From Evansella sp. LMS18 (GTDB lineage Bacteria; Bacillota; Bacilli; Bacillales; Salisediminibacteriaceae), in contig NZ_CP093301.1 in the NCBI RefSeq assembly GCF_024362785.1, forward strand, positions 1,860,001 to 1,924,000: a stretch of DNA of 64,000 nt, written 5' to 3'. A model generated the notes under the pieces. The model was not told where the DNA came from. It ran no database searches and worked only from the letters and a program-made list of their open reading frames with translations. Positions 1,548 to 63,367 of this stretch are shown here, piece after piece. The translations under genes were made by a program, and so were the position numbers. Each line of letters starts with the position of its first letter. The first letter of the stretch is position 1.

Positions 1548-1645
1548 CTGATCCTTCGGTAACTGGCTGGCATCGTGCTTTCACACGGAAGCCCCTGTAG
1601 CTTTGCGTCACTGGTTTTCACCAGCTTTGCCTTTATCGAGATACA
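1548..1645 (-). ncRNA. Cyclic-di-GMP-I (GEMM-I) riboswitch aptamer
   Basis: On the minus strand the segment carries the hallmarks of the GEMM-I class in order: AAAGGCAAAGC, a short GAAA-capped hairpin (CTGGT-GAAA-ACCAG), the nearly invariant TGACGCAAAGCTACAGGG, a second hairpin arm with the GNRA-like GAAA loop, then GATGCCAGCCAGTTACCG closing the P1 region. The class binds c-di-GMP and usually controls motility, adhesion and pilus genes. Here it precedes DUF192, two flp pilins and a prepilin peptidase, and is followed by an intrinsic terminator. Whether ligand turns expression on or off cannot be read with confidence. Confidence 0.9.
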
Positions 1646-31495: not shown

Positions 31496-31876
31496 ATGCC
31501 TGCATTAAGAAATGCACAAATTATCTATATAGCAGTCTGGGTTATTTTTTACACCATAATTGAGACATTATTTGCTCAAAAAATAATGTTTGTATATGGA
31601 AATCACTGGAATAACTGGCATAATATTTGGCTGAACGCAACCTTATTTATTTTTCTGGTCATTCATTACAGAAAACCTGTTTGGGCCCTTATTCTTGCAC
31701 TACCAGCAGGTCCACTGTTCTATTTTATGTTCCCTGTACCGCTCTATTTATTAAATATTACAGAGGTGAGATTCCTGATGTTGTCCACTCCAGTTTTTTT
31801 ATTGCTCCTATTTTTAACTTATCTGTTAATGACGTTCTATTTATACAGAAATAGTGAAAGAAAGTCAAAAGAATAA
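31496..31876 (+). CDS. Small membrane protein, CBO0543-like
   Basis: 126 residues with four hydrophobic helices. The pattern E-T-x-x-x-x-K near residue 22, followed by WNNWHNIWLNATLF and HYRKPVWALILALPAG, resembles the CBO0543 family of Firmicute membrane proteins of unknown function, though I hold this as a resemblance. The ribosome binding site before the ATG is poor, so the true start is uncertain. It is followed by a long hairpin. The gene lies between the partition cassette and an SDR gene without clear link to either. Confidence 0.55.
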   Translation: MPALRNAQIIYIAVWVIFYTIIETLFAQKIMFVYGNHWNNWHNIWLNATLFIFLVIHYRKPVWALILALPAGPLFYFMFPVPLYLLNITEVRFLMLSTPVFLLLLFLTYLLMTFYLYRNSERKSKE

Positions 31877-31894
31877 TGAGCAAAATAATAAAAC

Positions 31895-31946
31895 AACAAG
31901 CCGGAATATGCAAGTTTTATTTATAACTTGGTATTCCGGCTTGTTT
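31895..31946. terminator. Long bidirectional terminator
   Basis: AACAAGCCGGAATATGCAAG and its near-perfect complement form a stem of about 20 bp with A and T runs at its ends, between two convergent genes. Confidence 0.88.
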
Positions 31947-31978
31947 TAAATGAAGTTGTTTTTTCTTTCTAAATCTAT

Positions 31979-32728
31979 TTACTTCGTATTTGTAAAACCA
32001 CCGTCAATACGAATTACTTCCCCATTAATGTATTGTGCTTTAGAGGTTAATAAAAATGTTACAAGTTCCGCTACTTCTTCTGGAGTACCTAAACGTTTTT
32101 GTGGAATTCCGCCAGTGGCATTTGCTTTCATTTCCGGATTTGCTTTATAGAATTCTTTTACCATAGGGGTTTCAGTCGGCCCAGGTGCAATCGCATTTAC
32201 CCGCAATCCATCTTTAGCATATTCTGCAACCATACTTTTGGTTATACCAACAATACCGTGCTTAGTAGCAGAATAAGTCACAACTGAGTCCTGCCCTATG
32301 ACCCCAGCACTTGAAGCTGTGTTTACAATAGAACCTCCACCATTTTTCAGCATGACATCAGCTACATAACGAACACCATACAATGCCCCCAATAGGTTGA
32401 TGCCTACGATCGTGTCTATTTCCTCGACTTCTGTATCCAAAAAGAACTTTCCACTCCCTGAAATGCCTGCATTGTTAAAGAAATAATCAATTGTTCCAAA
32501 CTGTTCAACTGTTTTATCGACATAGTTTTTCACTTCTTCTTTTTTTGAAACATCCGCTTTGACAAAAAAAGAGTCAACTCCCTGCTCCTTAACCAGATTG
32601 ACTGTTTCCTGTCCACCTTGTTCATTTACATCTACTACTGCAATATTTACTCCCTCTTTAGCTAACCGAATAGCAGTAGACTGTCCTAAACCACTGCCAG
32701 CACCAGTTATAATAGCAACCTTATTCAT
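31979..32728 (-). CDS. SDR-family NAD(P)-dependent oxidoreductase
   Basis: 249 residues, classical short-chain dehydrogenase. Cofactor motif TGAGSGLGQS (residues 8-17); an acidic residue after the second strand (VAVVDVNEQG) favours NAD over NADP; NNAGISGSG; the catalytic Ser in NTASSAG and Tyr-x-x-x-Lys in TYSATKHG; and a C-terminal INGEVIRIDGG loop. It resembles acetoin/glucose dehydrogenase-type SDRs; the substrate is unknown. The start at 32728 follows TTGGAGGGAAATAC. A longer upstream frame adds residues with no SDR counterpart. Likely a single-gene unit. Confidence 0.9.
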   Translation of the reverse strand: MNKVAIITGAGSGLGQSTAIRLAKEGVNIAVVDVNEQGGQETVNLVKEQGVDSFFVKADVSKKEEVKNYVDKTVEQFGTIDYFFNNAGISGSGKFFLDTEVEEIDTIVGINLLGALYGVRYVADVMLKNGGGSIVNTASSAGVIGQDSVVTYSATKHGIVGITKSMVAEYAKDGLRVNAIAPGPTETPMVKEFYKANPEMKANATGGIPQKRLGTPEEVAELVTFLLTSKAQYINGEVIRIDGGFTNTK

Positions 32729-59580: not shown

Positions 59581-60426
59581 TTATGATTTCGGAATACGTA
59601 TTGTAAATTGATAATAGTCGTCATGCTCTTCTTCAGCCGTATCGATATCAAGCCCTGTCTGAACTACCATATCAACAGATTTTCGAATTGTATTCATTGC
59701 AAGCCTGGTATCCTTTGAAACACTTTTACGTATAGGCTTCTTTTTCTTAGGCTTGTCTTCTTTTAGTTTTTTAATGAATTCCTCTGTTTGTTTTACGTTC
59801 AACTCATCAGTAAGGATTTTATTTAATACCTTCTCCTGCTGTTCCGCTTCTTTTAATCCGATCAGCGCCCGGGCATGCCTTTCTGTTATCGACCTGTCAA
59901 GAAGCGCCTCCTGAACAGACTGCGGAAGGTTCAGCAGTCTTAATTTATTGGCTATAGTTGATTGTCCTTTCCCAAGCCGCTGAGCTAAGCTTTCCTGAGT
60001 AAGGTTATGGATTTCAATAAGTTTTGCATATGCTGCTGCTTCTTCTATAGAGGTTAACCCTTCACGCTGCAGGTTTTCAATTAGGGCAACAGAGGCTGTC
60101 TGGGAATCGTTAAAATTTTTAATTATAGCTGGTATATTTTCCCATCCGAGCGTCTGGACTGCCCTCCATCTTCTCTCCCCTGCAATTATTTCATACTGGC
60201 CATCCTGCTCCCTGACAACAATTGGCTGAATAATGCCATGTGTCTTAATTGTCTGTGCCAGTTCTTCAATTTTTTCCTCCTGGAACACTGTCCTGGGCTG
60301 GAAACGGTTTGGTTTGATTTCGGAAACTGGAATTTCATGGACCTGCTCTTTATCTATATCCAGCTTTTCTTCGTTTTCTCCAGCTTTATCATTAAACCCA
60401 AATAGTCTTGAGATAGATTGTTTCAT
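59581..60426 (-). CDS. noc: Nucleoid occlusion protein Noc
   Basis: 281 residues. It begins [14 protein letters not shown], the amphipathic membrane-binding helix of Noc that is absent from ParB. CTP-binding domain with GERRWRAVQ (about residue 85), [15 protein letters not shown], then HTH with [14 protein letters not shown], and a C-terminal dimer domain ending [11 protein letters not shown]. It binds NBS sites over the chromosome and stops Z-ring assembly there. Start at 60426 chosen for AGGTGG spacing of 7 nt; a GTG two codons earlier is too close. Its leader holds the structured RNA at 60457-60615. Confidence 0.95.
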
Positions 60427-60456
60427 TGCCACACCACCTTAGGAAAATGCCTCTGT

Positions 60457-60501
60457 ATAAAAATCCTGCTTTAGCAGAATGAACCCACTGATTGAAGCAG
60501 G
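60457..60501 (-). terminator. Terminator between the structured RNA and noc
   Basis: Minus strand CCTGCTT pairs with AAGCAGG across a 23-nt loop and is followed by ATTTTTATA. It lies 31 nt before the noc start codon, so it would end the upstream RNA or attenuate noc. Confidence 0.7.
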
Positions 60502-60525
60502 AAATTTGGGAGTCTTACTTATTTA

Positions 60526-60615
60526 TAGCACTGGTAAGCTTCAACGGGTGTTGCACCTGGCTGGGGAGTAAAGCCCCCTTACTTCGCCCGTCCCTCTCCT
60601 GCTTTTACAGTGCTA
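60526..60615 (-). ncRNA. Strongly structured RNA in the noc leader, class unknown
   Basis: A 90-base minus-strand segment closed by an 8-bp stem TAGCACTG/CAGTGCTA. Inside it a second helix GTAAAAGC/GCTTAC continues the stem, then ACGGG pairs with CCCGT, enclosing two hairpins: AGTAA-GGGGGC-TTTACT (or the alternative GGGG/CCCC) and GGTG-CAA-CACC. This nested multi-branch design, followed by a terminator and then noc, is what a riboswitch or attenuator looks like. I do not recognise c-di-AMP, T-box, ZTP, THF, preQ1, glycine or cobalamin motifs in it. It may also be an independent small RNA. No binding partner can be inferred. Confidence 0.6.
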
Positions 60616-60699
60616 TATTTCTGGCAGTATTATATTAATTACCTATATTATACTATACACCAATGAAGTAAGAGGCTTTAAATAATAAATTTTAAAAAT

Positions 60700-60715
60700 T
60701 GTTTCACGTGAAACA
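60700..60715. other. parS site between rsmG and noc
   Basis: TGTTTCACGTGAAACA is a perfect 16-base palindrome and exact match to the parS consensus. It lies just after the rsmG stop codon, upstream of the noc leader RNA. Confidence 0.96.
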
Positions 60716-60720
60716 GATAT

Positions 60721-61434
60721 TTATAAAGGTTCTTTATTTGGTGTTCCTGCTTTTCTTGGATATTGCTTTGGAGTTTTTCTCACTTTAGCAACTTTAACGA
60801 TCGAGCGTTCACTGTTTTCAGAAGGTAAGCGAAAGGTGTCGACTGTCTTCAGTTCTCCTCCCAGTAATTCAAAGGCATTTCCAGCATCATTAATTTCTTC
60901 CTGTGCCCCTGCGCCTTTCATTGCTATGAAGTACCCTTCCTTTTTCACGAGAGGAAGACATAACTCTGAAAGGACAGGCAGTCTTGCTACAGCTCTGGCC
61001 ATGGCAATATCATAATGTTCACGATGGCTTTTATTTTTACCAAACAACTCCGCCCGGTCATGAATAAACGCTACTCCTTTTAAATTCAACACGGAAGCAA
61101 GCTCATTTAAAAAAGTAATCCGCTTATTTAAGGAGTCCACAATTGTTACATGGAGATCCGGAAACGCTATTTTAAGCGGGATACTCGGAAAGCCGGCTCC
61201 CGCTCCTACGTCTACAATATTTAGCGGCTTGTTAAAGTCATAATAAAAAGCTACAGAAACAGAATCATAAAAATGTTTTAAATATACTTCATTTTTTTCT
61301 GTTATTGCCGTTAGGTTCATTTTCTGATTCCATTCTGTTAATGTTCTGTAATAGCTGTTGTATTGCTCCATCTGCTTTTCTGATAACTCAATCCCTTTTT
61401 CTGCAAGGGCTTCTCTGAATTGATTTTCTTCCAT
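60721..61434 (-). CDS. rsmG: 16S rRNA (guanine-527-N7)-methyltransferase
   Basis: 237 residues, family-typical. SAM-binding motif [16 protein letters not shown] (about residue 70), [14 protein letters not shown], and [15 protein letters not shown] (RsmG signature) are complete. It methylates G527 of 16S rRNA; loss confers low-level streptomycin resistance in other bacteria. It lies 16 nt after mnmG. AAGGTGGTAAAAATTCT precedes the ATG. Confidence 0.97.
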
Positions 61435-61450
61435 AGAATTTTTACCACCT

Positions 61451-63367
61451 TTATTCAGCTAAGGAAGAAGAAGATTCTTCACTGGAGTTGATTTTTTTAA
61501 GTCTTCCCTGCTCCAAATAAACAAGCAGAACAGAAACGTCTGAAGGATTAACTCCGGAAACCCGGGAAGCCTGAGCTACTGATAATGGCTTTACCTCTGC
61601 TAATTTTTGTCTGGCTTCAATTGCCAGTCCGTTTATAGCCGAGTAATCGAGATCCTCAGGCAATTTCTTATTTTCCATTTTTTGCAGTTTCTCTACTTGT
61701 TCCATCTGCTTTGCGATATATCCCTCATATTTTATCTGTATTTCCACTTGTTCCGCAACATCTTCGTTTACAGGTGTTTCCGGCGGCACAAGCTTAGCTA
61801 CATGCTCGTAAGTAATTTCGGGTCTTTTAAGCAGAACAGCCGCATTGATGGCGTCCTTTAGTGCGGCAGTGCCCGCTTCTTCCATAACCTTCTGCGCTTC
61901 ATCGGTCATTTTAATAAATGTATTTTTTAAGCGTTTGATCTCTTTATCGATTTCCCTGTTCTTTTCAAGGAAACGCTCATAGCGGTCTTCGCTTATTAAG
62001 CCAATCTTATGACCAGTTTCGGTCAGCCGGAGGTCCGCATTGTCGTGGCGTAAAAGTAAGCGATACTCCGCTCTCGAAGTTAACAGGCGATATGGTTCGT
62101 TAGTTCCTTTAGTGACAAGGTCATCAATCAGTACGCCAATATAGGCTTCCGATCGGTCTAAAATAAGCGGGTCTTTCCCTTGTACGGAAAGCGCAGCATT
62201 TATGCCAGCCATAACTCCCTGTCCAGCAGCTTCTTCATAGCCGCTTGTACCATTAATCTGTCCTGCTGTAAACAGCCCTTTTATTTTCTTCGTTTCAAGG
62301 GACGGCCAGAGCTGTGTTGGCACCATCGCATCATACTCGATTGCATAGCCGGCACGCATCATCCGGGCATTTTCCAGACCAGGCACGGTTTTTAAAATTT
62401 TCATCTGCACATCTTCCGGCAGACTTGTAGAGAGCCCCTGTACATAAACTTCCTGCGTATTTCTTCCCTCCGGCTCCAGGAACACCTGATGCCGTGGTTT
62501 GTCATTAAACCGGACAATTTTATCCTCAATAGACGGGCAGTAACGTGGGCCTGTTCCTTCAATCATACCTGAATACATTGGGGACCGGTCAAGGTTATTA
62601 TTTATTAAATGATGTGTTTCTTCATTCGTATACGTCAGCCAGCAAGGAAGCTGGTCTGTAATATATTTAGTTGTCTCATAGGAAAATGCCCTCGGAACAT
62701 CATCTCCAGGCTGAATCTCTGTTTTACTGTAATCAATCGTATTGCTATTGACTCTCGGAGGTGTCCCTGTCTTAAAACGAACCATCTCAAAACCAAGGTC
62801 CTGAAGGTGATAGGAAAGATTCACAGAAGGCTGCATATTATTTGGCCCGCTCTCATAAGACAGGTCGCCAATTATTACCTTCCCCCGCAGATAGGTACCA
62901 GTAGTAATAATTACCGTCCTGGCGTTATATTTAGCTCCCGTCTGTGTCACTACCCCTTTTACCTGGCCGTCTTCCACGATAAGTTCTTCCACCATTCCCT
63001 GGCGGAGCATAAGATTTTCCGTTTCTTCAATTGTCTTCTTCATTTCATGCTGATATAAATATTTGTCTGCCTGTGCCCGCAGCGCGCGTACCGCTGGCCC
63101 TTTCCCTGTATTAAGCATTCTCATCTGAATATGAGTCTTATCGATGTTCCGTCCCATTTCACCGCCAAGTGCGTCTATTTCCCGTACTACAATTCCCTTG
63201 GCCGGTCCACCTACGGAAGGGTTGCATGGCATATATGCTACGGCATCCAGATTAAGTGTCAGCATTAAAGTGTCCGCTCCCATTCTGGCTGCGGCAAGGC
63301 CCGCCTCTACACCGGCATGGCCGGCTCCAATCACAATAACGTCGTAGTCTCCGCCGTGATAACTCAT
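61451..63367 (-). CDS. mnmG: tRNA uridine-34 5-carboxymethylaminomethyl modification enzyme MnmG (GidA)
   Basis: 638 residues. FAD fold [21 protein letters not shown] at the start (quoted in part: [12 protein letters not shown]), [11 protein letters not shown], then [32 protein letters not shown]-type motif, and a C-terminal helical domain that contacts MnmE and tRNA. With MnmE it modifies the wobble uridine of several tRNAs. Start ATG at 63367 (MSYHGGDYD) has AAAAGGAG 8 nt before it; a GTG three codons earlier overlaps that site. Confidence 0.97.

What the first reader, a model, noticed from the sequence alone, without database searches (positions are those of the whole stretch)
60457..60615. 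Unrecognised structured RNA in the leader of noc, next to a parS
A 90-base domain with nested, mutually consistent helices (8-bp closing stem, second stem, ACGGG/CCCGT, two internal hairpins) is followed by an intrinsic terminator and then noc. Noc and ParB are CTP-dependent, so a leader RNA that senses a metabolite, growth phase or Noc itself would be interesting. No riboswitch family known to me fits. The parts are seen in the sequence; the regulatory role is inference. It could equally be a free small RNA.
Basis: partly seen in the sequence, partly recalled or inferred. Interest (0 to 1): 0.8.

Follow-up and report, generated by a model that had tools for sequence, protein, structure and literature searches.

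The report
Candidate noc attenuator in two Evansella
The stretch before the cell-division gene noc folds into a hairpin domain and a terminator-like hairpin that may act as a simple on/off transcription switch, but it was found in only two sister species, is probably not a riboswitch, and its trigger and even its use are unproven.

Summary
The window is from an Evansella-like genome; noc and its leader are on the minus strand. The closing stem (60608-60617/60524-60533), a terminator-like hairpin and a parS are there. Rfam has no match. The domain was found only here and in E. clarkii (full-length in 2 of 9 genus and 2 of 35 family genomes; two further order hits lie inside ORFs). The interior drifts like fourfold synonymous sites, against a ligand-binding core. 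AAGCAGGA occurs twice (A, C) with one complement (B). B:C makes the terminator, A:B prevents that larger hairpin, and the two folds lie within 1-2.5 kcal/mol in both species. C sits on the -35 of a sigma-H-type promoter seen in other Bacillaceae noc leaders; here its -10 is gone, so noc transcription probably passes the hairpin. Best reading: a lineage-specific attenuator, trigger unknown. Substitution tests are at most suggestive and the promoter scan found no minus-strand promoter. A non-switching leader is the main rival. Modest interest.

The parts
59581..60432 (-). noc (ParB-family nucleoid occlusion gene); start codon probably ATG at 60426
   Evidence: ORF; closest relative 98% identical in E. 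clarkii; ribosome site AAGGTGG 60434-60440; name from its ParB-like sequence and place between rsmG and the soj/spo0J-like ORFs (recalled synteny, no family search made)
60700..60715 (.). parS TGTTTCACGTGAAACA
   Evidence: sequence; parS consensus recalled; exact copy within 700 nt upstream of noc in 18 of 27 loci printed
60629..60634 (-). candidate sigma-A -10 (TATAAT; TATACT in E. clarkii); a second TATAAT lies at 60647-60652
   Evidence: sequence only; no good -35, and the consensus scan reports no minus-strand promoter here (its 4 sites are all on the plus strand); start site not mapped
60608..60617 (-). closing stem P1, 5' arm TATAGCACTG
   Evidence: pair 60617-60524 is U-A here and A-U in E. 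clarkii
60597..60604 (-). segment A, AAGCAGGA (possible antiterminator arm; its AAGC can also pair with GCUU 60536-60539)
   Evidence: exact complement of B (I6); conserved in E. clarkii
60563..60589 (-). inner hairpin P2, GGG..AGTAA/TTACT..CCC
   Evidence: all 8 pairs unchanged in E. clarkii, changes fall in loop and bulge; no covariation
   Evidence: 9 substitutions in 52 aligned bases and 4 indel columns
60524..60533 (-). closing stem P1, 3' arm CAGTGCTATA
60495..60502 (-). segment B, TCCTGCTT (TCCTGTTT in E. clarkii): 5' arm of the large terminator hairpin, or partner of A
60464..60471 (-). segment C, AAGCAGGA: 3' arm of the terminator hairpin; with the next TTT it matches a sigma-H -35 (GCAGGATTT, 60461-60469)
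60456..60463 (-). T-run TTTTTATA after the hairpin
60721..61434 (-). upstream gene rsmG (gidB)
   Evidence: ORF; name recalled from sequence and synteny

Best explanation
A lineage-specific transcription attenuator in the 5' leader of noc. RNA starts near 60620 (inferred from the -10), so the P1 domain forms first. If P1 stays closed, segment A is held in the domain, B is free to pair with C, and the B:C hairpin followed by UUUUUAUA stops transcription before noc. If P1 opens, A pairs with B and RNA polymerase is more likely to read into noc, although a weaker small hairpin over C remains. Shown: the segments, the two near-equal predicted folds, their presence in both species, and the missing sigma-H -10. 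Inferred: promoter, termination, switching. What tips the balance is unknown; a protein, a pause, temperature or salt fits better than a small-molecule aptamer because the interior drifts.
For: A is an exact repeat of C and an exact complement of B; a set like this next to a T-run occurs in 3 of 400 shuffles (window) and 9 of 400 (E. clarkii) (test devised after seeing the set, G-U allowed). Folds P1+B:C and A:B: -48.7 and -49.6 kcal/mol here, -47.4 and -44.9 in E. clarkii; B:C hairpin -13.8 and -11.4. Closing pair changed on both sides, U-A to A-U, and the U.C next to the stem became U-A. E. clarkii domain z -4.4. The four substitutions in 60457-60524 are the compensated stem position, one C-to-U kept as a G-U pair, one loop base and one unpaired base. 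The sigma-H-type promoter of other noc leaders (36 of 80 loci, E. clarkii counted among the misses, at 1 mismatch or fewer in the 150 nt upstream; 31 of 1600 mononucleotide shuffles; 2 of 80 reversed) has no -10 here, so noc is probably read from upstream through the hairpin.
Against: Only two sequences, one double change. Permuting substitutions does not show significant protection: P 0.23 and 0.07 for the P1+B:C fold, 0.21 and 0.51 for the A:B fold. The pair-shuffle control reached the observed score in 264 of 500. The window copy is not exceptionally stable for this window and terminator-like sites are no more frequent than in shuffles. The two species favour opposite folds (A:B probability 0.80 here, 0.26 in E. 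clarkii). No minus-strand promoter in the consensus scan. The small hairpin over C (-6.4) can still form in the A:B fold, so A:B is not a clean antiterminator. Hairpins before a T-rich stretch within 60 nt of noc are in 2 of 80 loci in a strict scan but 8 of 80 in a laxer one, so having one is not very special. C's sequence is explained by descent from a sigma-H -35. No RNA data.
Confidence: 0.4

Rival explanations
1. Ordinary 5' UTR: a stable 5' hairpin plus a weak or partial terminator, perhaps only ending rsmG read-through, with no regulated switching. A and C resemble each other because the sigma-H -35 region was duplicated.
For: C is at the sigma-H -35 of relatives; the A and C regions match over 12 of 14 bases; window domain stability is at about the 5th percentile of the window; protection tests not significant; terminator-like sites at shuffle level.
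Against: P1 double change, E. clarkii z -4.4, both folds possible at near-equal energy in both species.
Confidence: 0.35
2. A free small RNA of about 165 nt (about 60620 to 60456) that acts in trans, its terminator being constitutive.
For: 5' stem and 3' terminator-like hairpin are what a stable small RNA needs.
Against: Then noc would need its own promoter after the hairpin, and the sigma-H -10 there is missing; one match in the own genome and no wider family found.
Confidence: 0.1
3. A DNA element: the inverted repeat or the A/C repeats bind a regulator near parS, and RNA folding is incidental.
For: Both strands of the 91-nt domain fold about equally well (z -1.40 and -1.58); the adjacent 60631-60720 has no substitution against E. 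clarkii.
Against: Arms lie 74 bases apart; the C-to-U change in B is tolerated as G-U, which fits RNA, though one such change proves little.
Confidence: 0.1
4. A new riboswitch class sensing a metabolite such as CTP.
For: Leader position, nested stems, terminator-like hairpin; no Rfam match.
Against: Interior evolves like fourfold synonymous sites and has indels; found in no other species in the searches made.
Confidence: 0.04

Closest known systems
Transcription attenuators (mutually exclusive antiterminator/terminator leaders; general class, recalled)
   Same: Repeated segment A/C competing for B, near-equal energies, T-run before the gene
   Different: No ATG leader peptide (no ATG in 60427-60622), no T-box match, no known regulator site recognised; only two species; switching untested
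Rfam riboswitch and leader families
   Same: Structured leader ahead of a gene
   Different: No match at E up to 10 in 4227 families; variable interior
Sigma-H promoters (RNAGGAWWW / RNNGAATWW, consensus as printed in one passage seen of PMC8510167)
   Same: GCAGGATTT at the expected place before noc
   Different: No -10 in this lineage

Membership tests
Transcription attenuator | Terminator hairpin plus U-run upstream of the gene | tested here: met
   predicted B:C hairpin -13.8 kcal/mol then UUUUUAUA; termination itself not tested; number of terminator-like sites not above shuffles
Transcription attenuator | Mutually exclusive antiterminator kept in relatives | tested here: inconclusive
   A:B possible in both species at near-equal energy; substitution tests P 0.21 and 0.51; small hairpin over C remains possible
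Transcription attenuator | Condition-dependent read-through | not testable with these tools
   needs RNA data
Riboswitch (new class) | Conserved ligand-binding core | tested here: not met
   interior changes at the rate of fourfold sites; two species only, so a small core cannot be strictly excluded
Known Rfam family | Match to a covariance model | tested here: not met
Sigma-H promoter | -35 RNAGGAWWW and -10 RNNGAATWW, 10-13 apart | tested here: not met
   -35 matches fully, the -10 at that site has 4 mismatches; over 300 nt the best site anywhere has 3 mismatches, at the AT-rich promoter region
T-box / leader-peptide attenuator | T-box match in Rfam, or a leader ORF | tested here: not met
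   no Rfam match; no ATG in the leader; GTG/TTG starts not scanned systematically, one GTG reading in the interior is shorter in E. clarkii (by eye)

The most novel reading that the evidence does not exclude
In one Evansella lineage, sigma-H control of the nucleoid occlusion gene was lost and replaced by an RNA switch in its leader that gates noc, and perhaps soj-spo0J behind it, in response to a cell signal, built by duplicating the old -35 element into the two competing arms.
Probability: 0.1. Interest if true: 0.65.

Novelty: new member of a known kind. Interest (0 to 1): 0.33.

Why it matters
If the switch is real it would show RNA-level control of a chromosome-segregation and division checkpoint gene, and a case of a promoter element being turned into attenuator arms. 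As it stands it is a two-species candidate. The broader result is that noc carries a sigma-H-type promoter motif in many of the Bacillaceae-type loci examined (36 of 80), which suggests how nucleoid occlusion could be tied to stationary phase and sporulation; whether this is already known for noc could not be checked here.

Tried and rejected
Rfam at both thresholds and on 20 of the 80 relatives' loci (one hit, Bacillaceae-1 in L007 on the other strand, not this element). Structure-model search R1: 2 of 35 family genomes (own and E. clarkii) and 3 of 397 order genomes (stricter filters). Of those 3, two (L120, L121) lie inside long ORFs and were rejected as chance. Phage and plasmid collections: 4 and 6 records with short weak matches; viral contigs: none for one 19-base pattern. 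Mobile element: one match in the own genome at E 0.001 or better; two further short matches at E 0.25 and 0.46. Search for a noc leader switch in print: searches listed nothing on point in the held library. Of papers I saw only search listings and the passages returned. Britton 2002 on the sigma-H regulon is not held, so whether noc is listed there is not known to me. E. caseinilytica (L003) also has a long noc leader with a T-run, but its sequence is unrelated and its hairpin is not a clean terminator. The rarity of a hairpin before noc was first taken (2 of 80); a laxer rescan gave 8 of 80 within 60 nt and 11 of 80 at 61-110 nt, so I dropped it as support and lowered the best explanation from 0.42 to 0.40 and raised the non-switching rival from 0.33 to 0.35; the empty promoter scan also counts there.

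Full report
Setting. The window lies in a 4.9 Mb genome whose Noc is 98% identical to that of Evansella clarkii. The noc ORF is 59581-60432 on the minus strand, with the probable start ATG at 60426 and ribosome site AAGGTGG at 60434-60440. rsmG lies upstream at 60721-61434 and the parS at 60700-60715 (gene names recalled from sequence and synteny). The finding is therefore the reverse complement of 60457-60615.

What is there. The closing stem is exact: TATAGCACTG at 60608-60617 against CAGTGCTATA at 60524-60533. A perfect stem of 10 bp or more occurs in 27 of 2000 shuffles of this leader and 21 of 2000 of the E. clarkii leader. The 99-nt domain folds at -33.5 kcal/mol, z -2.4, with 11 of 500 shuffles as stable; the E. 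clarkii domain is at -34.6, z -4.4, 0 of 500. As a yardstick, 136 of 2558 stretches of 99 bases across the window, both strands, reach z -2.4 and 26 reach -4.4, so the window copy alone is not remarkable. The whole 213-nt leader has z -0.69, and the two strands of a 91-nt cut of the domain fold alike (z -1.40 and -1.58). Rfam gives no match in 60400-60740 even at E 10. The consensus scan of 59800-61700 finds 3 terminator-like sites (2.1 in shuffles) and 4 promoter-like sites (3.6 in shuffles), none of the promoter-like ones on the minus strand.

Distribution. By DNA the domain is in 2 of 100 genomes (own and G003). With a longer query at E up to 1, 8 of 9 genus genomes show something, but only own and G003 match along the length; the rest are stretches of at most about 37 bases. 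G003 matches E. clarkii (L002) in position and sequence. A covariance model of the two copies (R1) finds 2 of 35 family genomes and 3 of 397 order genomes. The two extra order hits lie inside long ORFs and I count them as chance. So the element was found in two sister species only.

Conservation. Fourfold sites differ at 19 of 108 (noc) and 23 of 90 (rsmG). The domain interior 60537-60591 differs at 9 of 52 aligned bases plus 4 indel columns, that is, at about the same rate. The flanks are far more alike: 2 of 133 upstream (including the rsmG tail and parS), 4 of 68 in 60457-60524, 0 of 24 next to the start. The GGGGG/CCCC hairpin loses three bases, and GGTGCAACACC loses its match (by eye). 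One inner hairpin, GGG..AGTAA/TTACT..CCC, is kept, with the changes in its loop and bulge. A ligand-binding core would be expected to be the best-kept part, and here it is the worst, so I reject the riboswitch reading.

Switch anatomy. AAGCAGGA occurs at 60597-60604 (A) and 60464-60471 (C), and its exact complement TCCTGCTT at 60495-60502 (B). The fold with P1 and B:C is -48.7 against -49.6 for A:B here, and -47.4 against -44.9 in E. clarkii, so the two species favour opposite folds (A:B probability 0.80 and 0.26). A set like A-B-C beside a T-run occurs in 3 of 400 and 9 of 400 shuffles; this test was devised after seeing the set. Against this: permuting the 16 substitutions gives P 0.23 and 0.07 for the P1+B:C fold and 0.21 and 0.51 for the A:B fold, and the shuffle control on two sequences is uninformative (264 of 500). 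The small hairpin over C can form together with A:B, so the antiterminator is not clean.

Why C is there. In 36 of 80 noc loci a sigma-H-type promoter (RNAGGAWWW, 10-13 bases, RNNGAATWW) is present with at most one mismatch in the 150 nt upstream, against 31 of 1600 mononucleotide shuffles and 2 of 80 reversed leaders. Many of the 80 are close relatives, so they are not independent; E. clarkii is one of the misses, and L003 has a site outside the 150 nt. The consensus is as printed in a passage of PMC8510167 that I saw. A stricter form of the motif is in 17 of 40 relatives' genomes (none in the own genome, 0 in the backward control), and in 8 of the 19 loci it fetched it stands before a comGA-like ORF (comGA named from recall). 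In the window and E. clarkii the -35 (GCAGGATTT) survives as segment C plus the start of the T-run, but the -10 at that site has 4 mismatches (window; the sequence is identical in E. clarkii). If so, noc is probably read from upstream, perhaps from the TATAAT at 60629-60634 or 60647-60652 (no good -35, start not mapped, not reported by the scan), through the hairpin. A full terminator would silence noc, so it is either weak or regulated. A terminator-like hairpin within 60 nt of noc is in 2 of 80 loci (L002, L003) in a strict scan and in 8 of 80 in a laxer one, so its presence alone says little.

Verdict. The best-supported reading is a lineage-specific attenuator (0.40), with a non-switching leader close behind (0.35). 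It is a candidate new member of a known kind, of modest interest. In the library searches made nothing on a noc leader switch was listed; the sigma-H regulon paper that would tell whether noc is a known member is not held.

Noticed in passing
60631-60720: From the rsmG stop through parS to the candidate -10 there is no substitution against E. clarkii although fourfold sites differ by 18-26%: a stronger constraint than on the RNA domain itself.
   Followed up: partly
noc leaders L002-L081; L083-L101: Sigma-H-type promoter motif ahead of noc in 36 of 80 Bacillaceae-type loci at 1 mismatch or fewer, and the same motif ahead of comGA-like ORFs in 8 of 19 loci (comGA recalled).
   Followed up: partly
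1555-1641 (-): c-di-GMP-I riboswitch by Rfam, 79.7 bits.
   Followed up: no
31851-31999: Among the most stable local folds of the window, z below -6 on both strands; not examined.
   Followed up: no
L003 1800-2000: E. caseinilytica has an unrelated long noc leader: a sigma-H-like promoter about 185 nt upstream, hairpin GCCGTGTC/GACACGGC and a run of seven T before the ribosome site.
   Followed up: partly
60464-60477 and 60597-60610: 12-of-14 direct repeat, 133 bases apart, which could mark an insertion or duplication at the old sigma-H -35.
   Followed up: no
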